Positions 16,480 to 38,203 of a stretch of 64,000 bases of DNA are shown here, one piece after another. Position 1 is the stretch's first letter, and the number at the start of each line of letters is the position of its first letter. The DNA comes from Bacteriovorax sp. MedPE-SWde (GTDB lineage Bacteria; Bdellovibrionota; Bacteriovoracia; Bacteriovoracales; Bacteriovoracaceae): the NCBI GenBank assembly GCA_001874305.1, contig MPCU01000010.1, positions 62,001-126,000 on the forward strand, written 5' to 3'. The notes beneath the pieces were generated by a model, which saw nothing but the letters and a program-made list of their open reading frames with translations, was not told where the DNA came from and did not search any database. The position numbers were made by a program, and so were the translations under genes.

Positions 16480-17385
16480 ATGAAAGAAGATACAAACAAT
16501 AGCAATGAAGTAGGTAAGGTTTGCATTGTCGATCGTGGCCTATACATAAGTGTTGTGTTGCAAAATGATTGCGACTCTCTCATATTGGAGGATTCATTTA
16601 TTAGTATTGTTGAGCGTCCTAAGCATATTGTTTTCAACCTTGCTTACGTTGACAAAATGAATGCTCAGTTGATTCTTTCATTGAAGGCAATTATTCAACA
16701 GATTGAATCGCTTGGGATGAGCGTTTATTTCGTATTTGCTTGTGACTCTCTCGATCAATACCTAGAAATAGACCCAGTGGGTAAAGACTTTAAAGTTAGA
16801 CCTAATCTCATTTCTATTTTGGAAGAAATTAATGAGAATGCTACGAAGAATGATGTTGATGTAAGTTTCATTAAGTCTTTTGTTAATGCTACTGTGAGAA
16901 CTGTCTTTGTTCAGGCCAAGACATTAGCTAAAAGAGAAAGCCTTGGAATGATAGATAAAGAGAAGAACTTACTAAAAGGTGATATCTCTGGTGTTGTGAA
17001 TGTCGAGGCCACACAATATCCTTATGTAATTCTTCTTTCTTTTCCAAGTTCTACTTTTATAAATCTCATTAATATTATGACAGGTGAATCATATACTGAA
17101 ATAACTGATGACATAGCCGATGGTGCTAAAGAGTTGATGAATATTATCTATGGGCAAGCAAGTTTATCACTGAATAAGAAGGAGGATTTTAGACCGAATC
17201 CCCCTGAGATGATAAGAGGGACTGTGTTTCCAGGTAATGAAAGCATAGATGTAGTCACTAAGGTAACTACATCTCTTGAGTCTGGTGTAATGATGAGCGC
17301 TGTATTTACTTCAAAGGTTGGTGCTTTTAGTTTATGTTTTTGGTTTCCTGACGCTCGAGTCGCGCAAGCACTAATTCATTCTTAG
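16480..17385 (+). CDS. STAS-CheX fusion protein
   Basis: 301 residues, cytoplasmic. Residues about 10-105 look like a STAS/anti-sigma-antagonist domain (SIVERPKHIVFNLAYVDKMNAQLILSLKAII resembles the conserved strand-helix with the SpoIIAA phospho-Ser region, but with an Asn/Ala where Ser is usual). Residues about 130-300 look like CheX: the helix DGAKELMNIIYGQA carries the ExxN pair (Glu and Asn) used by CheX to hydrolyse phospho-CheY. The gene begins one base after the ankyrin stop, without its own ribosome site. The set suggests a CheY-P phosphatase whose activity or location is set by the STAS and ankyrin parts; inference. Confidence 0.7.
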   Translation: MKEDTNNSNEVGKVCIVDRGLYISVVLQNDCDSLILEDSFISIVERPKHIVFNLAYVDKMNAQLILSLKAIIQQIESLGMSVYFVFACDSLDQYLEIDPVGKDFKVRPNLISILEEINENATKNDVDVSFIKSFVNATVRTVFVQAKTLAKRESLGMIDKEKNLLKGDISGVVNVEATQYPYVILLSFPSSTFINLINIMTGESYTEITDDIADGAKELMNIIYGQASLSLNKKEDFRPNPPEMIRGTVFPGNESIDVVTKVTTSLESGVMMSAVFTSKVGAFSLCFWFPDARVAQALIHS

Positions 17386-29107: not shown

Positions 29108-30397
29108 TTAATTACTCAATGACTTCATAAAGTTCACTAAATCTGTTCTCTCTTGAGAAGATAAATTTAGCCCACTTCTTAACCTTCTATTATCAATTGC
29201 ATTAAAGCGATTTGTTTGTCTTGCAAAGTTCTTATCAACAAGTATTTCCTCTTGATACGATGCCTGTAAGTCTGGACTAATCTGGTAATTCGATAAACTA
29301 TTACCAATATTATTATAGTGATTAACTACATCCTCTAAAGTCTTTATTGATCCATTGTGCATGAACGGGGAAGTTTTTGATATGTTTCTAAGGCCGGGTG
29401 TTTTAAAGCGATAACGATCTGAGCTAAGTCCTGTCACCTCTTCCCTTCCTGTATCATCAGAGTTACTAGAAAGAGAAGGGTAGATATGTGGGACACCAAC
29501 ACTATGTAGTTGGTTATCTGTTAAATTTGGGCCACTGTGACATTGAATACATTGACCTCTTGTTAGAAAGACTTCTAGACCTCTTTTTTGTGAAAGGTTT
29601 AATGCGCTAGTGTCTCCAAGAATGTATTTGTCATAAGGAGTATTAGATACTAGGAATTCGTTCTTTATAAACTCCCCAAGTGCACGCCCAATATGACCAA
29701 TATTGTATGTTTGTGTTGTTGGATAGGCACTTTGTAGCAGAGTTAAATAATCCGTGTCTATTAGAACTCTTCTGCTCATTATATTATCCCAAATTGTATG
29801 GTTATCTGATGATGTTGCAAGATCATTAGAGTTTAACTGTCCCAGCATTTCATCATTACTTAATAGAGGAAAAATCGTTTGAGCATCCAAAGCGCTTGTT
29901 AGTAGCGATGATATATTTGCGTTGATAGAGACTGGGGTTGTAAGTATACCGTTTCTCATTTGAACTCTTCCATCATAGAAGGCCATCTCCTGCTCATCTT
30001 GTCCTAGATTAAATAATTGAGGTGAATGTCTTCTTATAGTTTTAGAATTAGAGTTGATTTGAACTCTATTTGGTCCTTCTCCTGTTGCTCCTGTCCCTAT
30101 TGAGAGTGCAAGTGAATCACTAGTTCCAAAATTAGGATCGTGACAACTCGAGCATGATATATCTCTATTTCCACTAAGGTTCTTATCGTTAAATAGCTTT
30201 TTGCCAAGCTCTGTAAGATTATTGAACTGTGCACTGTTGTTAACAGCGACAAGGCCGCTTTCTCTGATTAATCCATTTAGCCTTCTGTCTGTTTGTACTT
30301 CAGCTGGTGAAAGTTTTACTTCTTCAATACCTGAGTCATTACATGATGTGAGAATTAAAATTGAAATCATAATGATAATAATTTGTAGTAAGTACAT
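29108..30397 (-). CDS. Dihaem cytochrome c peroxidase/MauG-family lipoprotein
   Basis: 429 residues with a lipobox (LTSC) after a hydrophobic N-terminus, so membrane-anchored in the periplasm. Two haem-binding CxxCH sites, CSSCH and CIQCH, in the usual order, with GFxTP-like FKTPGLRNISKTSPFMHNGS near the C-terminus as in the CcpA/MauG family. Such enzymes reduce H2O2 or oxidise proteins using cytochrome electrons. The ATG at 30397 was chosen because AAGGAG lies six bases before it; the earlier in-frame ATG at 30403 touches the ribosome site. Confidence 0.88.
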   Translation of the reverse strand: MYLLQIIIIMISILILTSCNDSGIEEVKLSPAEVQTDRRLNGLIRESGLVAVNNSAQFNNLTELGKKLFNDKNLSGNRDISCSSCHDPNFGTSDSLALSIGTGATGEGPNRVQINSNSKTIRRHSPQLFNLGQDEQEMAFYDGRVQMRNGILTTPVSINANISSLLTSALDAQTIFPLLSNDEMLGQLNSNDLATSSDNHTIWDNIMSRRVLIDTDYLTLLQSAYPTTQTYNIGHIGRALGEFIKNEFLVSNTPYDKYILGDTSALNLSQKRGLEVFLTRGQCIQCHSGPNLTDNQLHSVGVPHIYPSLSSNSDDTGREEVTGLSSDRYRFKTPGLRNISKTSPFMHNGSIKTLEDVVNHYNNIGNSLSNYQISPDLQASYQEEILVDKNFARQTNRFNAIDNRRLRSGLNLSSQERTDLVNFMKSLSN

Positions 30398-30576
30398 AAA
30401 CATCTCCTTAATACGTCTCTTTATCAGTATCTTATCAATCTTAGGGGTTTCTTAGTGTTGCCTTTTGTAAAATTTTGTATCTGAAAAGATCGAAACAAAT
30501 TGTTACATTTCAAAACATTAGTGAAAACTAGGGCCGGCACTTGTTTGATAAATTTAGATTACACAAGGAGATAAAT

Positions 30577-30753
30577 ATGACTTTAGATTATAGAGAATTA
30601 AAGAAAGAGTTTTTAAAGAAGCAAAGACAAGAAAAGGAAAGTTGGAAAAAAAATAATCTTGAAGAAGATGAGTGTATGACTAAGGAAGAGGCGCTTCTTA
30701 GAGACAAGAAGCAAGAGCATTGGGAATATTTAGTTGGTAAACTATTTAAATGA
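30577..30753 (+). CDS. Small charged helical protein, unknown function
   Basis: 58 residues, very rich in Lys and Glu with heptad-like spacing, so a single long helix or coiled coil is likely. A good AAGGAG precedes the ATG at 30577; the longer frame from TTG at 30541 lacks support. It ends overlapping the convergent histidine-kinase gene by eight bases. Confidence 0.55.
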   Translation: MTLDYRELKKEFLKKQRQEKESWKKNNLEEDECMTKEEALLRDKKQEHWEYLVGKLFK

Positions 30754-32080
30754 GTTTCTTTGGAAAAGAAAGTGTTGTTGTTGTTCCTACATTATCTCCA
30801 TGCGTGGATGAATTGACCTTGATTTGTCCACCATAGGAGATCATGAACTTTTTAACGAGAGGCATACCAAAACCTGTTCCTAATTCACCATCAGTTCCAA
30901 GTCGTGAAGTTTGCTCTGTTTCACTAAAGAGATTACTTAATAGTTCCTCTGGGATTCCTATTCCATAGTCAGTAATGATGACCTCATTAACATCTTCTTT
31001 TTCAATTGAGGATATATGAATTTCTCCACCTTCGTGAGAGAATTTTATAGAATTTGTTAGTATATTGTTAAGAATAGAGTTAACCAAGCTTGTTTCTTCT
31101 GCAAATACTTCTAAGTCTTTATCATGGCCTTCAGTAATGGTTATATTCTTTGATTTAATTTTTTCGTTAAGTGTTTTAAGTGATTTATTTAAAGAGTTTG
31201 AGAACTTTATTGGAGTTGACTCAACCTTAAATTTACCTGCTTCTAGGGCCTGCATCTTTCTCGTTAGGTCAATAATGTCCAAAGATTCTTTTGCATTTTC
31301 TTTAATATTTTCAAGCATGTTGCTCTTTGCTTCTTCATTAAGTAAATGGCCCATTTCTGTAAGGCTATATATAGCACTAACAGGATTCCCTAGATCATGA
31401 CACAGAACATGTATTAAGGTTTCTCGCTGCTTACTGAGGAGGTTTGCTCTGTCTTGCGCAGCTAATCTTTCTCTAAGGTTTTCTGCATATCCTATATAGA
31501 CTTTTCTTATGAGGAACATAAGGAATAATATAGTAAATAGAGAGACACCAACTGTTTGAGTTATGGTTTTTAAGATTCTTTGAGAGTTCTTGTCTCTATT
31601 TTCTGCTAGCGCCTCTGTTGAATCATAAATTTCTAAGGAGAAGTCACTGAGTTGGTTTTGAAAGTCTTTACTTATAGATAGTTTCTTTGCCTCGACCAAC
31701 TTTTCCTTTGTAAGGAGATATATAATCTCTCTACCATCTTTAAATAGCTTTGTAGCTGATTCTTTGGATGTTTTTGATCTTACATTAAGAGACTTATAGT
31801 TTTGTTCAAGAGACTCAAAGTTCATTTTCAGATCTTGAGCAATACTCCTATCTTGATTTTCAAAAACTAATTTAAATTGATAATTAATCTGATTAACTAG
31901 TCTAACATTTATTGCACTTCTTTCAGTAAGAGGAAAGTGTAACTCATCAATTTCTTCAAGTGTATTCCACATTTTACTTATAATAGAGATAGTAAGAATA
32001 ACGAGAAATATTGATAATAGTAAGCCTAGTATAGAGGCCTTCTTTGGGAATAAATTAACTTCTTTAGTGTTTTCTATCAT
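30746..32080 (-). CDS. Membrane sensor histidine kinase
   Basis: 444 residues. Two membrane segments (17-36 and 172-192) frame a helical periplasmic domain like the four-helix sensors of chemoreceptors. A signal helix follows, then the phospho-acceptor HDLGNPVSAIY with His228, and a catalytic domain with NILTNSIKFS (N box), DYGIGIPEEL and GTGFGMPLVKKF (G boxes). The HDLGNP form of the H box is common in kinases that talk to chemotaxis-like receivers. It overlaps the upstream receiver-TPR gene by four bases, so the two work as a pair. Confidence 0.9.
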   Translation of the reverse strand: MIENTKEVNLFPKKASILGLLLSIFLVILTISIISKMWNTLEEIDELHFPLTERSAINVRLVNQINYQFKLVFENQDRSIAQDLKMNFESLEQNYKSLNVRSKTSKESATKLFKDGREIIYLLTKEKLVEAKKLSISKDFQNQLSDFSLEIYDSTEALAENRDKNSQRILKTITQTVGVSLFTILFLMFLIRKVYIGYAENLRERLAAQDRANLLSKQRETLIHVLCHDLGNPVSAIYSLTEMGHLLNEEAKSNMLENIKENAKESLDIIDLTRKMQALEAGKFKVESTPIKFSNSLNKSLKTLNEKIKSKNITITEGHDKDLEVFAEETSLVNSILNNILTNSIKFSHEGGEIHISSIEKEDVNEVIITDYGIGIPEELLSNLFSETEQTSRLGTDGELGTGFGMPLVKKFMISYGGQIKVNSSTHGDNVGTTTTLSFPKKLI

Positions 32081-33360
32081 AGTATTAGTGACATTGACCT
32101 TGCATATGACTCGAAGTCTTGAATCATTTTTGTTGATGCTTCTTTCTTTATTTTCTTATGGAGGTGATAAATACAATCCGAATCATACTCTACACCTTCA
32201 AGTCTTGTCGCAGCTTCATTGATAATCATCTCAATTGGTTTATTAGATTGGATTTCTCTAATATAAGCACACGTTCTAAATTCTGGAGTTTTTTCATTTT
32301 CTACAGAGAACTTAGCGTATGTATTTTCTGAGTTATTATATAGTTCAAACTTTGCAAAAGTCTTAAAGATATTTCTTAATATTTTAGGATCATTTTGTGA
32401 GTACTTTAGGGCCTTTGTTAACAGAGACACTCCTTCGATTTCACTTCCCTTTTTTAGAGTATCTAATGCACAAACAGTAATTCCTGATGCGCAAAACCTT
32501 ACAATATCGATATTGTTTGATTCATCATCAAGAATTTTTGTACAGTACTTCTCTAGTTCTACAAATTTACCTGAAAGAATAGCGAGCCTAAACATGTCAT
32601 ATATTCTCACCATACTAAGAGGGAATGTTTTAAAAACTTTCTTAAGTACTTTGTAGGCCTTGTCATAGTTCTCTTCTTCAAAATAGAGATCATGTAAAAT
32701 TAAGAGGCATTTGTAATGATCTTTATTAAATCTAAGTCCTTGTATTGCCAGTGAGATTGCTTCTTGGTTGTTACTTTCGCTCATTTGTATTTTGGCGAGA
32801 TAGTAATAAACCATCGATGGTCTAGGATGAAGAGCTTGAGCAACGTGGGCCATCGCCTGTGCTCCAGCATAGTCTTTAGACTCAGTTTTAACTTTTATCT
32901 CATTAAGTATATATTTGTACTGGGAAGGGAATGTTTTGTTAATTAAGGTCTTTTCAATTTTCTTTAATAGTTTTGTTTGATCATATGGCTCGACAATATA
33001 GTCATCAATATCTTCTTCAAGTGCTTGAGCAAATGTGTAGATGGCCTTATTTAAAGAAAACGCAAGGAAGAATCTTTCAAAGTTGTTAGGAATAAGGGAC
33101 TTATGCTTGTCAATTAGCTTAAATATCTCTTTGTCATTTGTTTCAATAAAGCATGCTAAATATGATGGCTTATTTTTTTGTAAAAACGTAAGAGATTCTT
33201 CTATTGTTTTCGTTGAATGTATATTTTCTTCTTTTACACCAAGGTTAGTGAGTGTATTTATTGTAACACTTTTTATTTTCTCTTTAGGATCAAGAATTAA
33301 ATATTGCAGGTTCGTGATCTTTGAATTTAGTTCAGCTCGTTGAGTTGCATTTACGCTCAT
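32077..33360 (-). CDS. Degenerate receiver-TPR protein
   Basis: 427 residues. Residues about 15-140 follow the receiver fold (YLILDPKEKIKSVTINTL; end EDIDDYIVEPYDQTKLLKKIEKTL), but the phosphorylated Asp is replaced in the YLACFIETND segment, and the conserved Lys is Glu (VEP instead of VKP). From about residue 150 on come tetratricopeptide-like helix pairs (AGAQAMAHVAQALHPRPSMVYYYLAKIQMSE, EEENYDKAYKVLKKVFKTFP). A phosphorylation-independent adaptor is the likely role. First gene of the operon with the histidine kinase; diverges from CheY-CheX-like genes. Confidence 0.75.
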   Translation of the reverse strand: MSVNATQRAELNSKITNLQYLILDPKEKIKSVTINTLTNLGVKEENIHSTKTIEESLTFLQKNKPSYLACFIETNDKEIFKLIDKHKSLIPNNFERFFLAFSLNKAIYTFAQALEEDIDDYIVEPYDQTKLLKKIEKTLINKTFPSQYKYILNEIKVKTESKDYAGAQAMAHVAQALHPRPSMVYYYLAKIQMSESNNQEAISLAIQGLRFNKDHYKCLLILHDLYFEEENYDKAYKVLKKVFKTFPLSMVRIYDMFRLAILSGKFVELEKYCTKILDDESNNIDIVRFCASGITVCALDTLKKGSEIEGVSLLTKALKYSQNDPKILRNIFKTFAKFELYNNSENTYAKFSVENEKTPEFRTCAYIREIQSNKPIEMIINEAATRLEGVEYDSDCIYHLHKKIKKEASTKMIQDFESYARSMSLIL

Positions 33361-33371
33361 TTAATTCTCTA

Positions 33372-33408
33372 TATAATACTTTTATAATATCTATTATATT
33401 GTATAATA
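33372..33408. promoter_or_regulatory. Divergent AT-only promoter region with TATAATA repeats
   Basis: Three copies of TATAATA at 33372, 33383 and 33402 in a 79-base gap between divergent signalling operons. The first two are 11 bases apart. They may be alternative -10 boxes for both directions. Confidence 0.35.
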
Positions 33409-33439
33409 TTTTGTAATATATAAAAGGGGAAAACTTCGT

Positions 33440-33802
33440 ATGAAAGTACTTGTTGTTGATGATAGTGCTGCTCAAAGATTGATTCTCAAGTCAGTTGTTC
33501 AAAATTTTGATAAAGATCTTGATGTTATTGATCTCGCAGATGGAACTCAGGCCCTTAAAGAGCTTAAGAATGGCGGAGTATCATTAGTATTCTCTGACAT
33601 CAATATGGAGCCGATGTCTGGAATAGAACTAGTGAATGAATGTAAAGCCCTAGACATTGACCCTGTTTTTGCCTTTGTTACATCCCATTTAACAGATACG
33701 ATGAAAGAGAAGGCTGATTCTATAGGTGTAAAGTATTTCATTACTAAGCCAATTACCCAAGACAAGATTGAAGAAGTTCTTAAAGAGGTTCTTCATGCTT
33801 AG
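33440..33802 (+). CDS. CheY-like single-domain response regulator
   Basis: 120 residues, a complete receiver: Asp7/Asp8 in VVDDS, phosphorylated Asp53 in VFSDINM, Thr/Ser81-82, and Lys103 in ITKP. No output domain, so it acts by protein contact as CheY does. The stop overlaps the CheX-like gene by eight bases (ATGCTTAG). The divergent histidine kinase is the obvious phosphate donor. The ATG is preceded by GGGGA. Confidence 0.9.
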   Translation: MKVLVVDDSAAQRLILKSVVQNFDKDLDVIDLADGTQALKELKNGGVSLVFSDINMEPMSGIELVNECKALDIDPVFAFVTSHLTDTMKEKADSIGVKYFITKPITQDKIEEVLKEVLHA

Positions 33803-34262
33803 TTTAAGTAGCTTTTCAGATAATATAGTTAACAGTTGTAAAGCGACATCTATTGAGTTTCTTGGTGCGAAAGATGTCTCTATCACAGTAGTTAATCCTG
33901 AAGTTATATTCGAAGAAATTTCTGGTCCTAGCATTGAAGTTCGAGGTAAAAAAATACACTACTCTTGTATTCTCGAGTATAAGGCCGATCAGAGTTTACA
34001 AATCTTAGACTTATTTTCTCAAAATTATCCTTTCTTAAATAAAGATGAATTACCTGAATTAGATCTTCTTGATTTGTTAGGAGAGTTTCTTAATATTCTT
34101 TCTGGAAAGATTAATAAAGAATTAGAATCTGTAGAAGGTGACCTTTCTATTGAAATCCCATACTTTGAATATGGAATAGATGTAGAAGAGTCTCAGCAGT
34201 TTGGCTCGATTGAGTGTTTATTCGATAATGTTAAGTTTAATATACACTTTGTGATTAATTAG
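33795..34262 (+). CDS. CheX-like phosphatase/chemotaxis protein
   Basis: 155 residues. The helix LLDLLGEFLNILSGKINKEL has the ExxN arrangement of CheX, where Glu and Asn drive hydrolysis of phospho-CheY, followed by the beta strands GDLSIEIPYFEYG. Paired with the overlapping CheY, it would reset that receiver. The ATG at 33795 has AGAGG six bases upstream; the longer TTG frame at 33768 is rejected. Its stop overlaps that of the convergent PstS-like gene by four bases. Confidence 0.7.
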   Translation: MLSLSSFSDNIVNSCKATSIEFLGAKDVSITVVNPEVIFEEISGPSIEVRGKKIHYSCILEYKADQSLQILDLFSQNYPFLNKDELPELDLLDLLGEFLNILSGKINKELESVEGDLSIEIPYFEYGIDVEESQQFGSIECLFDNVKFNIHFVIN

Positions 34263-34726
34263 TCTTCAATAGGTTCAAGTCTGTTCTCTGACTTCTTAGG
34301 ACTGAAGAAGTGTAGTCCCTTATATTTCTTTGATGGTAAACTCGAAATTACTGCAATAGCACCTTCGGTTCTATGGACATATTCGAGTACTTTTCTATCT
34401 GATTCAAGCTCAATTGGGGGATGACCTTTTCCTGAAAAGAGTCTACGTCTCCAGTATTTATTGTATTGACGAGGATTCATAGAAACAACATTATTTAGAA
34501 AGTCGATCATGTGAGATGATTTCTTTCCAATATGTGCAGCAAATATTCTCTCTCCGTTACGCCATAAAACCCTGTGACCTAAGAATATATCTTTAAGGTC
34601 TTTTAGGTCTACATTCTCTTCAATTGCGGACTCTGTAGAGCTCATAACTACATAGCTATCGGCCATTGCAACAGGTGTTAGAATTAGGAATAAAAGTAAA
34701 TATCTTATATACATATTATTTTTCAT
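34259..34726 (-). CDS. Small periplasmic PstS-like substrate-binding protein
   Basis: 155 residues with a signal peptide (about 1-22). VDLKDLKDIFLGHRVLWRNGERIFAAHI, then a segment MNPRQYNKYWRRRLFSGKGHPP and EGAIAVISSLP, match the short phosphate-ABC-transporter substrate-binding-like family found beside sensors and porins in marine bacteria. It corresponds to about one lobe and a half of full PstS. No permease is nearby, so a sensory or accessory role is likely. Divergent from a porin-like gene 79 bases away. Confidence 0.7.
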   Translation of the reverse strand: MKNNMYIRYLLLFLILTPVAMADSYVVMSSTESAIEENVDLKDLKDIFLGHRVLWRNGERIFAAHIGKKSSHMIDFLNNVVSMNPRQYNKYWRRRLFSGKGHPPIELESDRKVLEYVHRTEGAIAVISSLPSKKYKGLHFFSPKKSENRLEPIED

Positions 34727-34805
34727 TTGTTTTAATTAGCTAATAGAATCCAGTATTATTTTTGATTTGTCCAAAAAAAAACTTAAGAAAAGTGAAATAA
34801 AATTA

Positions 34806-35912
34806 ATGAAGATAAATAGATTATTCCTTATTGTTTCAACGGTGTTTTTTACATTGAAAACAACGGCATTTGAACTACAGACTAAAGGTTTTTTAAGCTT
34901 TGGTTATAGCAGAAGTAATACCGAGAAACCTTATCAGGCTACACTCACTAAAGATGGTGAGTATACTGAATTAACTAGAGCTGGTCTTCAATTTTCAAGC
35001 GTTATTAGTCATAAGACTGAAGCTTTTGTTCAGGCCCTCGCTGATGGAAGTGATGGTCGTGATGTTAACTTTAGTTTAGATATTGCTCATATAACTCACA
35101 ACTTCAATAACAAGCACAAACTCTTAGTTGGTAAGATTAGACTCCCTGTCTGGTTGATATCAGAGTATTTACAAGTAAGTGCTTTGTACCCTTGGATTAA
35201 TCCTCCTGAGGAAGTTTACGAATTAGTTCCCTTTGATGATATTGGGGGGACAGAAACTTTCTTTGGTGCTTCATTTGAAGGACAGGTCTTTAGAAATTCT
35301 CATAATCAACTTAATTATCGTATTTATAACGGTGGATCTGAAAGTCATTCAAACGGTATTCAGTCAAGAGTTGAGAACCTTCATGGTATAACATTTGATT
35401 ATTTGCAAGGAGACCTAGAGTTAAAGCTTAACTATTTGAATATGATTAGTTCTGCCGAGCAAGAAGATGATTTAGGGGAGAAGCTAGACGTATCTAAGGG
35501 TCGTACTGAGTATTTCTCTGTAGGGCTTAGGTTTGATACTGAATCTTATATAGTGATGTCTGAAATGTCTCAAGTATATAGTGAAACGACAAGCTTTGAG
35601 GATGTCCTCTCATACTATGTTATGGGTGGACTTTATTTCGATGATCAGAAATATCTTCTTCATGCAACTTATTCTGAAGTTTCTGATAATGCCAAGTCAG
35701 ATTTAGATCTATTTCAAGAGACTCTAAGTTTAGGTCTTAATTATCATCTCGATTATTCAACAGTTCTCAAGTTCGAGGCCAAGAGAGTATTTCTTCCTGA
35801 GCCTCCAAAATTTGAACCAGGTAAGAAGAAGCCAAAGGGTTCTGGTTTATTTGATGAACACCCTGATAAAGATGTCGATATTATTTCTGTATCTATAAGT
35901 ACTATTTTCTAA
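34806..35912 (+). CDS. Porin-like outer-membrane protein
   Basis: 368 residues with a signal peptide (about 1-23) and a mature start ELQTKGFLSFGYSR. The sequence is made of amphipathic strands typical of 16-18-stranded porins found beside small PstS-like proteins, and ends VSISTIF with the C-terminal Phe used for BAM assembly. The ATG at 34806 opens the signal peptide; an upstream TTG at 34767 gives an unlikely charged extension. A clear terminator follows. Confidence 0.7.
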   Translation: MKINRLFLIVSTVFFTLKTTAFELQTKGFLSFGYSRSNTEKPYQATLTKDGEYTELTRAGLQFSSVISHKTEAFVQALADGSDGRDVNFSLDIAHITHNFNNKHKLLVGKIRLPVWLISEYLQVSALYPWINPPEEVYELVPFDDIGGTETFFGASFEGQVFRNSHNQLNYRIYNGGSESHSNGIQSRVENLHGITFDYLQGDLELKLNYLNMISSAEQEDDLGEKLDVSKGRTEYFSVGLRFDTESYIVMSEMSQVYSETTSFEDVLSYYVMGGLYFDDQKYLLHATYSEVSDNAKSDLDLFQETLSLGLNYHLDYSTVLKFEAKRVFLPEPPKFEPGKKKPKGSGLFDEHPDKDVDIISVSISTIF

Positions 35913-36614: not shown

Positions 36615-36684
36615 ATTTATCCCCCCTGTGGATATTGGTATGGATATACAATATCTAAGAATGAGAGTGCGCTGTTTTCACTAG

Positions 36685-36710
36685 TGTAAACTAATGTAAC
36701 AAAATGTTTC
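36685..36710. promoter_or_regulatory. Three TGT half-sites at exact 10-base period
   Basis: TGTAAA (36685), TGTAAC (36695) and TGTTTC (36705) fall every 10 bases in the gap between the lipoprotein and the OmpR-family regulator. Tandem sites with 10-11 base period are how OmpR/PhoB proteins bind DNA. Confidence 0.5.
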
Positions 36711-36768: not shown

Positions 36769-37452
36769 ATGCAAAAAATTATAATGATTGATGATGATAA
36801 AAAGCTATGTGATAAGCTTTCTGAGTACTTCGACGGTTTTCAGCTTAGTCTTAGCTCTTTTCAGACTTCTAAAGATGGATTAGATGCTATTAAAGAGTCG
36901 GACTTTTCAGTCCTTATCTTGGATGGAATGCTTCCTGATATGGATGGATTTGAAGTATGTAAAGAAGTAAGAAAGTTCTCTGACATTCCCATTATATTTT
37001 TAACAGGTAGAGTAGAGGAGACGGACAAAATATTAGGTCTAGAATACGGTGCAGATGACTATGTAACAAAGCCTTTTAGTGCAAGAGAGCTCGTGGCCCG
37101 TGTAAAATCTCAAATTAGAAGAATAGATGTAAAAGGTTCTAGTAATAAAGAGCTAGAAAGCGCAGGTCTAACTCTAAATCCTGGAAGCTATACAGCAAGC
37201 TATATGGCAAAAGATATCGACTTAACTGCAACAGAGTTTGAGATATTAAAGTTTCTTTTTGAAAACAAGGGAGAAACTAAATCTAGAGAAGAGATAATGG
37301 AAGGTCTTTATGGAGATACATGGGAAGCTTTTGATCGATCTCTAGATATAGCAATTAGTAGGATTAGAAAGAAGTTAAAGTCAGCATGTCCAGATGTTGA
37401 ATTCATAAAGACTGTAAGACTTAAAGGATATATCTTTGTTGACTTTAATTAA
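36769..37452 (+). CDS. OmpR-family response regulator
   Basis: 227 residues. Receiver domain 1-118 with Asp8-Asp10, phosphorylated Asp52 (LILDGML), Thr79 and Lys101. Winged-helix DNA-binding domain about 130-227 (LTATEFEILKFLFENKGETKSREEIM, DRSLDIAISRIRKKL, VRLKGYIF). Together with the overlapping kinase gene it forms a complete two-component system. AAGGA precedes the ATG. Autoregulation through the phased repeats upstream is likely. Confidence 0.93.
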   Translation: MQKIIMIDDDKKLCDKLSEYFDGFQLSLSSFQTSKDGLDAIKESDFSVLILDGMLPDMDGFEVCKEVRKFSDIPIIFLTGRVEETDKILGLEYGADDYVTKPFSARELVARVKSQIRRIDVKGSSNKELESAGLTLNPGSYTASYMAKDIDLTATEFEILKFLFENKGETKSREEIMEGLYGDTWEAFDRSLDIAISRIRKKLKSACPDVEFIKTVRLKGYIFVDFN

Positions 37453-38203
37453 CTCTCTATTGCTAACGGCCCTTTTCTTTTCTTGTTCTATTACATTCTT
37501 TTTAATGAGGAAGTTAAAGTTTCAACATAAAGAAGAGCTTCAAAGAAAAGATAAAGAAAACCAGTTTCTAATAAGTGCACGAGATAATCTTCTTCGCTCT
37601 GTAAATCATGAACTGAGGGCCCCTCTTGCTAGAATAAAGTTAGATGTAGAAATGTTAAATGATATGAGTTCTAAAAAGTCTTTGAATGAGGATGTCTTAT
37701 TTATGGAAGGACTTATTGATGAATTAATGGATCTCGAAAAGATCAAGGTTGGAAAGTTATCAAAGAATGAAATTAATATTACTAAACTAATTCAAGATGT
37801 TGTAGATAGATTAAATATTGATCTAGAATCACTTCATTTTGATAGCTCTGAAAGTATTGATTTCGATTGTGATGAAAGACTACTCGTAAAATTAGTTAAG
37901 AATCTTTTAGAGAATGCTTATAAATATAGAGCGCAAGGCGGAGATGTTCGAGTAAATTTAAAGAATGAAGATAAGAGAATTGTTTTAACAGTAATGAATG
38001 AAGGTGCAAATATTCCTTCTGAGGAAATACCATTTCTGTTTGAGCCGTTTTATAGGGCCAAAGGTTCAAAGGTTAATGGAGAGAGCGGTCTAGGTCTTGG
38101 GCTTAATATCTGTAAAGAGATTGCGATTGCACACAATGGTAAGATTCAAGTCTCATCTAAAAAAGATTTAGGAACTACATTTAAAGTGGTTCTTGCAAAG
38201 TAA
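37436..38203 (+). CDS. Histidine kinase, partner of the OmpR-type regulator
   Basis: 255 residues, short: one N-terminal membrane segment (5-24), a short linker, the H box NHELRAPLARIK with His58, the N box NLLENAYKY, and the G box ESGLGLGLNICKEI. It has almost no periplasmic domain, so it senses in the membrane or cytoplasm. Starts at TTG 37436 with AAAGGA seven bases upstream, inside the end of the regulator gene (17-base overlap), which couples their translation. Confidence 0.88.
   Translation: MLTLINSLLLTALFFSCSITFFLMRKLKFQHKEELQRKDKENQFLISARDNLLRSVNHELRAPLARIKLDVEMLNDMSSKKSLNEDVLFMEGLIDELMDLEKIKVGKLSKNEINITKLIQDVVDRLNIDLESLHFDSSESIDFDCDERLLVKLVKNLLENAYKYRAQGGDVRVNLKNEDKRIVLTVMNEGANIPSEEIPFLFEPFYRAKGSKVNGESGLGLGLNICKEIAIAHNGKIQVSSKKDLGTTFKVVLAK

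What the first reader, a model, noticed from the sequence alone, without database searches (positions are those of the whole stretch)
30746..35912. Divergent signalling island: kinase, dead receiver-TPR, CheY, CheX, PstS-like protein, porin
Six genes in 5 kb, overlapping in pairs, join outer-membrane entry (porin), periplasmic binding (PstS-like), a membrane kinase, a CheY and its likely eraser CheX, plus a receiver that has lost both its Asp and its Lys and carries TPRs. It could be one system that senses a nutrient such as phosphate and steers motility without a chemoreceptor array.
Basis: partly seen in the sequence, partly recalled or inferred. Interest (0 to 1): 0.6.

Follow-up and report, generated by a model that had tools for sequence, protein, structure and literature searches.

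The report
Porin–PstS-lobe sensor wired to CheY/CheX
In a marine relative of predatory bacteria, an outer-membrane pore and a half-sized phosphate-binding-like protein sit beside a sensor kinase, a small relay protein with its own eraser and a 'dead' relay protein; the set is kept together in three genera and looks like a known cholera-bacterium biofilm sensor re-wired to a different output.

Summary
All six genes are present as described. Three genomes of three Bacteriovoracaceae genera keep them in identical order and orientation (42-64% identity) while most surrounding genes differ: one unit. The input half is a widespread module, porin plus a single PstS lobe. In the phylum, 68 of 73 such loci have the porin within two genes and 49 of 73 a kinase, cyclase or chemoreceptor within three. 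The architecture matches Vibrio cholerae VpvABC (porin, binding protein, diguanylate cyclase), with a histidine kinase in place of the cyclase; its sensor domain is homologous to those of other kinases at such loci. CheY and CheX keep catalytic residues. The receiver-TPR protein lost Asp and Lys in all three orthologues; 13 of 21 paralogues keep both. Phosphate sensing is not supported (one lobe missing, phosphate loop changed). Motility steering is doubtful: a canonical CheY/CheX pair lies elsewhere in the genome.

The parts
30746..32080 (-). Membrane histidine kinase: helical periplasmic sensor domain, HisKA (H228 in HDLGNP), HATPase
   Evidence: Pfam; motifs kept in three orthologues; sensor domain homologous to kinases beside other PstS-like/porin loci, E 2.7e-23
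32077..33360 (-). Receiver-TPR protein with degenerate receiver (phospho-Asp site F71, Lys site Glu) and TPR array
   Evidence: AlphaFold2 model pLDDT 86.6; alignment with CheY and 21 paralogues; orthologues in L119 and L120
33361..33439 (.). 79-bp shared intergenic region of the two divergent pairs receiver-TPR/kinase and CheY/CheX
   Evidence: coordinates; similar 78-bp gaps in the two other genomes
33440..33802 (+). CheY-like single-domain response regulator, D53/T81/K103 kept
   Evidence: Pfam 4.4e-20; alignment of three orthologues
33795..34262 (+). CheX-like phosphatase; D93-x3-E97-x2-N100 and P122 invariant in three orthologues
   Evidence: Pfam PF13690 22.6 bits, under cut-off 27; alignment
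34259..34726 (-). Secreted single-lobe PstS-like protein (VpvB-like by context)
   Evidence: model pLDDT 90; Foldseek top hits PstS; 4q8r residues 80-194, Z 12.4
34806..35912 (+). Outer-membrane porin of the family found beside PstS-like genes (VpvA-like by context); 34806 is my choice of ATG, the listed ORF starts at TTG 34767
   Evidence: relatives beside PstS-like genes
36769..37452 (+). OmpR-type response regulator, co-occurs with the cluster
   Evidence: E<=1e-60 match only in the 3 cluster genomes of 12 searched; synteny
37436..38203 (+). Short histidine kinase paired with the OmpR-type regulator
   Evidence: syntenic in L052 and L119 at 46-51%
36677..36710 (+). Operator copy 1, upstream of the OmpR-type regulator
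30492..30525 (-). Operator copy 2, upstream of the di-haem peroxidase gene
29108..30403 (-). MauG/cytochrome c peroxidase-like di-haem protein; flanks the cluster in 2 of 3 genomes
   Evidence: CCP_MauG 7.7e-31; TIGR03981 252 bits, under its cut-off of 340; orthologue in L119, none in the fetched stretch L052
36045..36614 (-). YHYH-like secreted protein, also present in L119, not seen in L052
   Evidence: (under cut-off)

Best explanation
The island is one signalling unit. The porin lets an unknown small molecule through the outer membrane. The secreted single-lobe PstS-like protein binds it and docks on the helical periplasmic domain of the 30746 kinase. The kinase passes phosphate to the 33440 CheY-like regulator and CheX removes it quickly, giving a short-lived signal. 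The receiver-TPR protein cannot itself be phosphorylated by the usual chemistry and most likely acts as a scaffold or decoy that ties kinase, CheY or CheX to the final target through its TPRs. An OmpR-type kinase/regulator pair on the porin side belongs to the same island and probably supplies a transcriptional branch that, in two of three genomes, controls itself and a di-haem peroxidase through a private two-site operator. Shown by computation: gene content, synteny, folds, catalytic residues, sensor-domain homology, operator copies. Inferred: ligand passage, docking, phosphotransfer, scaffold role, which regulator owns the operator.
For: Same six genes, order and orientation in three genera while most flanking genes differ. 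PstS-like/porin pairing 68 of 73 and a signalling gene within three genes 49 of 73, falling with distance. The kinase sensor domain matches a profile of 16 other PstS-adjacent kinases at E 2.7e-23; best hit from loci fetched for other reasons 0.0054, among 321 targets. CheY and CheX active residues kept. Receiver-TPR lost Asp and Lys in all three orthologues; 13 of 21 paralogues keep both. OmpR-type regulator in 3 of 3 cluster genomes and 0 of 9 others. Operator found exactly twice per genome in two genomes. VpvABC precedent: PMC12456836.
Against: No interaction or phosphotransfer can be shown by sequence. The five genus-mates searched lack the cluster (completeness 73-99%). CheX is under the Pfam cut-off and has no useful sequence match among solved structures. 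The sensor-domain profile covers only the 420-490 aa kinases; longer kinases at PstS-like loci match weakly or not at all. 23 of 73 loci have a porin but no signalling gene within three genes (10 of them near contig edges; two are known undercounts). The operator is absent in the third cluster genome.
Confidence: 0.55

Rival explanations
1. The CheY is a second flagellar-switch regulator: the system steers swimming directly, bypassing the chemoreceptor array.
For: CheY plus CheX is a chemotaxis-like pair; the genome has FliM/FliN; a PstS-like/porin pair lies beside an MCP gene in Pseudoalteromonas, and MCP-like genes lie near PstS-like genes at three of the surveyed loci.
Against: Island CheY scores 43 bits against solved chemotaxis CheY, the C8 CheY of the same genome 142 bits, and that one already lies close to a stronger CheX match. 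The island CheY has DINME where the canonical one has DWNMP.
Confidence: 0.15
2. Two neighbouring but separate systems: a porin/PstS-lobe/kinase sensor and an unrelated CheY/CheX/receiver-TPR group held together by chance or shared ancestry.
For: Each half occurs without the other in many relatives: receiver-TPR relatives in 52 of 115 genomes, PstS-like genes in 70 of 368.
Against: The gene of the kinase with the PstS-type sensor domain overlaps the receiver-TPR gene by 4 nt on the same strand, and the interleaved order is kept in three genera at 42-64% identity although surrounding genes differ.
Confidence: 0.15
3. The kinase's true partner is the OmpR-type 36769 regulator, and CheY/CheX form a phosphate sink that drains the kinase.
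For: The OmpR-type regulator co-occurs perfectly with the cluster in the 12 genomes searched; single-domain regulators acting as sinks are known (recalled).
Against: The OmpR-type regulator gene overlaps its own kinase gene 37436-38203, which is its likelier partner.
Confidence: 0.12

Closest known systems
VpvABC of Vibrio cholerae (porin VpvA, periplasmic binding protein VpvB, diguanylate cyclase VpvC; PMC12456836, passages and one section read)
   Same: Porin plus periplasmic binding protein next to a membrane signalling enzyme; proposed chain of entry, binding, activation; that paper already suggests vpvAB is a sensing unit that was linked to vpvC later.
   Different: Output is a histidine kinase with CheY/CheX and a degenerate receiver-TPR, not a diguanylate cyclase; the host belongs to the Bacteriovoracaceae, while the section read reports Gamma- and Betaproteobacteria. 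Sequence homology to VpvA/VpvB themselves could not be tested here.
PstS phosphate-binding proteins
   Same: Fold of one lobe (Z 12.4 to 4q8r).
   Different: Half length; no Pst transporter genes beside it; phosphate-loop residues not kept.
CheX/CheY pairs of chemotaxis systems
   Same: Overlapping genes for a single-domain regulator and a CheX-type phosphatase with D-x3-E-x2-N.
   Different: No CheA, CheW or receptor gene in the cluster; a separate canonical CheY and CheX exist in the genome.
Sensor kinases using a periplasmic binding protein as co-receptor (TorT/TorS, LuxP/LuxQ; recalled)
   Same: Periplasmic binding protein proposed as co-receptor of a membrane kinase.
   Different: Binding protein is one PstS lobe and is paired with a porin; downstream parts differ.

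Membership tests
VpvABC-type three-component sensor | Porin and periplasmic binding protein genes adjacent | tested here: met
   Adjacent, divergent in the window; porin within two genes at 68 of 73 phylum loci
VpvABC-type three-component sensor | Third component is a membrane diguanylate cyclase | tested here: not met
   Third component is a histidine kinase; GGDEF versions were seen in L126, L128-L131, loci named as Desulfobacterota-type or other deltaproteobacterial MAGs
VpvABC-type three-component sensor | Sequence homology to VpvA and VpvB themselves | not tested
   No VpvA/VpvB sequence was at hand; only indirect: Alteromonas, a genus the paper lists for vpvAB, gave a matching PstS-like gene beside a porin-family gene
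PstS phosphate-binding protein | Two-lobed periplasmic binding protein | tested here: not met
   155 aa; model residues 24-155 cover residues 80-194 of 4q8r only
PstS phosphate-binding protein | Phosphate-loop residues R-x-D-G-S-G-T (contact role recalled) | tested here: not met
   Profile alignment to 4q8r puts GKKSSHM there
CheX phosphatase family | Pfam PF13690 above cut-off | tested here: not met
   22.6 bits, cut-off 27; 22.8 bits
CheX phosphatase family | D/S-x3-E-x2-N active-site motif (recalled) | tested here: met
   D93, E97, N100 invariant in three orthologues and aligned with two other CheX of the genome that keep E-x2-N
HisKA-type two-component kinase | Phospho-His motif and ATP-binding motifs | tested here: met
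   HDLGNP, NILTNS, DYGIGIP, GTGFGMP; corresponding motifs in both orthologues
Flagellar-switch CheY | Close sequence kinship with canonical chemotaxis CheY | tested here: not met
   43 bits against 142 bits for the C8 CheY of the same genome
Flagellar-switch CheY | Binds FliM/FliN when phosphorylated | not testable with these tools
   needs a protein assay
Phosphorylatable receiver domain (receiver-TPR protein) | Acceptor Asp and beta-5 Lys | tested here: not met
   F/Y/Y and E/S/E in the three orthologues

The most novel reading that the evidence does not exclude
The porin plus single PstS lobe is a portable sensing head that bacteria plug into kinases, diguanylate cyclases, nucleotide cyclases and chemoreceptors. 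In these marine bacteria it has been plugged into a CheY/CheX switch outside any chemoreceptor array, read out by a dedicated non-phosphorylatable receiver-TPR protein and coupled to a private two-operator regulon that controls a di-haem peroxidase: a chemotaxis-style fast on/off signal re-used for a non-motility output.
Probability: 0.4. Interest if true: 0.65.

Novelty: new variant of a known kind. Interest (0 to 1): 0.5.

Why it matters
The signal sensed by VpvAB-like units is called unknown in the passages read (PMC12456836). A phylum survey showing the same pair in front of many outputs argues that it is a general input device, and supplies kinases whose activity can be read out directly in vitro with candidate ligands. 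The cluster also gives a compact, naturally isolated CheY/CheX pair with a candidate non-CheA kinase, useful to test how CheX-type phosphatases and degenerate receivers are used outside chemotaxis.

Tried and rejected
Phosphate sensing as read-out of the PstS label: rejected as unsupported (missing lobe, changed loop). Motility steering: downgraded after another CheY and CheX of the genome were found. An operator shared by the two inner intergenic regions: the gaps were printed for the three genomes and show no common operator by eye; the operator found lies outside the six genes. Rfam and tRNA scans of the window gave nothing. Direct PDB sequence searches with the single PstS-like and CheX proteins gave nothing useful. 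PADLOC, PHROGs, phage and viral collections were not searched. Paper searches; of their results PMC12456836 was read by passages and one section, PMC8754643 by passages, all others were seen only as listings. None of these eight listings showed, by title or start of abstract, a paper on this cluster or on a VpvAB-like unit with a histidine kinase; that is no proof of absence, since the library holds open-licence papers only.

Counting notes: of 85 PstS-like rows, the 7 weakest (E above 1e-10) were not fetched and the window's own row was left out; of the other 77, my simple gene caller recovered 73. Loci from related genomes are not independent. In one search, L148 (a cluster locus, kinase four genes away) and L058 (Hpt plus kinase ATPase by Pfam, missed by my kinase profile) are counted as lacking a signalling gene, and the L052 kinase within three genes is the OmpR-pair kinase. 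My local GGDEF profile found nothing in these loci. The operator pattern was derived from its own two window copies, so its perfect match there is by construction; its absence elsewhere in two whole genomes, and its presence at both homologous promoters of the second genome, are not. The pattern was loosened after seeing the L148 copies.
Full report
What is there. The six genes exist at the stated coordinates with the stated strands and overlaps. Pfam supports a histidine kinase, a receiver-only protein and, weakly, a CheX protein; the receiver-TPR protein hits TPR models but no receiver model, and the PstS-like protein and porin hit nothing. The window lies in a 3.76-Mb genome at G000:C2:62001-126000. 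Named relatives holding a similar PstS-like gene are mostly Halobacteriovorax and other Bacteriovoracaceae.

Conserved linkage. A search of 115 relatives with the receiver-TPR protein found relatives in 52 genomes, but one stands out, G012 at 46% over nearly the full length. Its neighbourhood (L052) carries the same six genes in the same order and orientation at 46-64% identity. A scan of named genomes found a third, Halobacteriovorax marinus 36_234_T64 (L119), again with all six, at 42-58%; G012 is the uncultured Halobacteriovorax genome L120. G139 carries a PstS-like gene at the place matching L119, and its stretch L148 holds the same genes as L119. The wider flanks do not match anything in the 64-kb window except, in both, the OmpR-type regulator/kinase pair, and in L119 also the MauG-like and YHYH-like genes. 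CheX orthologues were found in 2 of 115 genomes, G000 and G012; G139 was not in that set. None of the five genus-mates searched has the CheX; their receiver-TPR hits are weak paralogues. The cluster is therefore patchy: one genome seen in each of three genera.

The input half. The PstS-like protein folds at pLDDT 90. Foldseek's best 30 hits are phosphate-binding proteins, the top at E 1.3e-4, and the second-look aligner gives Z 12.4 to 4q8r with model residues 24-155 on chain residues 80-194. It is thus one lobe of a PstS. A profile of 15 relatives finds PstS entries at about 1e-5 in two pieces; at the loop R-E-D-G-S-G-T of 4q8r the window protein reads G-K-K-S-S-H-M. The role of that loop in phosphate binding is recalled, not tested here. 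In 368 genomes of the phylum, 70 have such a protein. Around 73 recovered loci, a porin of the same family lies within two genes at 68 and a kinase, cyclase or chemoreceptor within three genes at 49. Signalling genes make up 27 of 144 neighbours at distance one, 23 of 135 at two, 6 of 120 at three, 4 of 95 at four and 1 of 152 beyond. Checked by Pfam, signalling neighbours include histidine kinases, a guanylate/adenylate-type cyclase (L064), a protein with an Hpt and a kinase ATPase domain (L058) and, in desulfobacterial and other deltaproteobacterial MAGs, PAS-GGDEF proteins. Two of the Pfam-checked neighbours were not signalling proteins at all (PEPCK in L122, DNA polymerase I in L066), and one was LptF/G (L063). 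Plasmid-collection loci of Gamma- and Betaproteobacteria show the pair next to an MCP gene, an EAL gene, and, one gene further, an ATP-binding protein with a sigma-54 regulator. The porin profile matches RefSeq 'porin' of Pseudoalteromonas at 1.6e-59.

The known precedent is VpvABC of Vibrio cholerae. [quoted passage not shown] I could not compare sequences with VpvA and VpvB directly.

The kinase belongs to the input. A profile of the N-terminal 215 residues of 16 kinases of 420-490 aa that lie within three genes of other PstS-like genes finds the window kinase at E 2.7e-23 and its two orthologues at 3.6e-19 and 5.5e-18. Among 321 target N-termini the best one from loci fetched for other reasons scored 0.0054; longer kinases at PstS-like loci matched at best at 8e-5. 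So this sensor domain is a mark of a class of PstS-like/porin loci, which argues that the PstS-like protein is its co-receptor.

The cytoplasmic half. CheY keeps D53, T81, K103 in all three genomes. CheX keeps D93-x3-E97-x2-N100 and P122 in all three. The receiver-TPR model shows receiver strands and helices at residues 20-143 followed by helical repeats; Foldseek hits are TPR proteins and, lower, response regulators such as PorX and RssB. At the acceptor Asp the three orthologues have F, Y, Y and at the Lys E, S, E, while 13 of 21 paralogues keep both Asp and Lys and 18 of 21 keep Lys. The loss is a conserved property of the cluster copy, though four of the paralogues carry Glu and four another residue at the Asp site, so degeneration is not unique to it.

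Motility. The genome has FliM/FliN and three CheA-type matches. On contig C8 a CheY (142 bits to a solved chemotaxis CheY) lies two genes from a CheX of 73.5 bits. The island CheY scores 43 bits. Direct motor control by the island is therefore possible but not the likeliest reading.

An OmpR-type regulator (36769-37452) and a short kinase (37436-38203) lie on the porin side in all three genomes. At E<=1e-60 the regulator was found in the three cluster genomes and in none of nine others, five of them of the window's own genus. A 34-bp sequence occurs upstream of this regulator and, on the other side of the cluster, upstream of the MauG-like gene, with none expected in shuffles; in two whole genomes a loosened form of the pattern is found exactly twice each, at these two promoters, and nowhere in the third, where no MauG-like gene was seen in the fetched stretch. 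The simplest reading is that the regulator controls itself and the peroxidase gene. Whether the six inner genes feed it is unknown.

Verdict. I file the island as a new variant of a known kind: a VpvAB-like sensing head on a two-component kinase with CheY, CheX and a degenerate receiver-TPR. The patchy distribution, the absence of any biochemical test and the small number of independent genomes limit confidence.

Noticed in passing
window 30492-30525(-) and 36677-36710(+); G139:C6:131198-131232(-) and 137706-137740(+): 34-bp operator-like repeat upstream of the MauG-like gene and of the OmpR-type regulator; exactly two copies per whole genome in two genomes.
   Followed up: partly
window 16480-17385(+): A 301-aa protein matching CheX (39 bits over 64 positions), directly after a 612-aa protein that looks like ankyrin repeats by eye.
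   Followed up: no
window 29108-30403(-): MauG-like di-haem protein scoring 252 bits on TIGR03981, the His-Xaa-Ser system-associated family (cut-off 340).
   Followed up: no
G000:C8:321980-322915 (L086): A second receiver-TPR gene in the same genome is followed by a kinase 32% identical to the island kinase over the aligned part; no PstS-like gene was seen there.
   Followed up: no
L132, Alteromonas mediterranea plasmid MRG65-300: PstS-like/porin-family pair lies about 0.7 kb from type IV CRISPR genes csf1-csf3 and csf5.
   Followed up: no
L130 5710-14321: One Desulfocapsa locus holds two porin/PstS-like pairs, with a histidine kinase and a sigma-54 response regulator between them and a GGDEF protein after the second.
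   Followed up: no
L124 and L119 (H. marinus 36_234_T64): The same genome carries a second, separate PstS-like/porin/kinase locus at 24-35% identity to the window's, so parallel sensors may coexist.
   Followed up: partly
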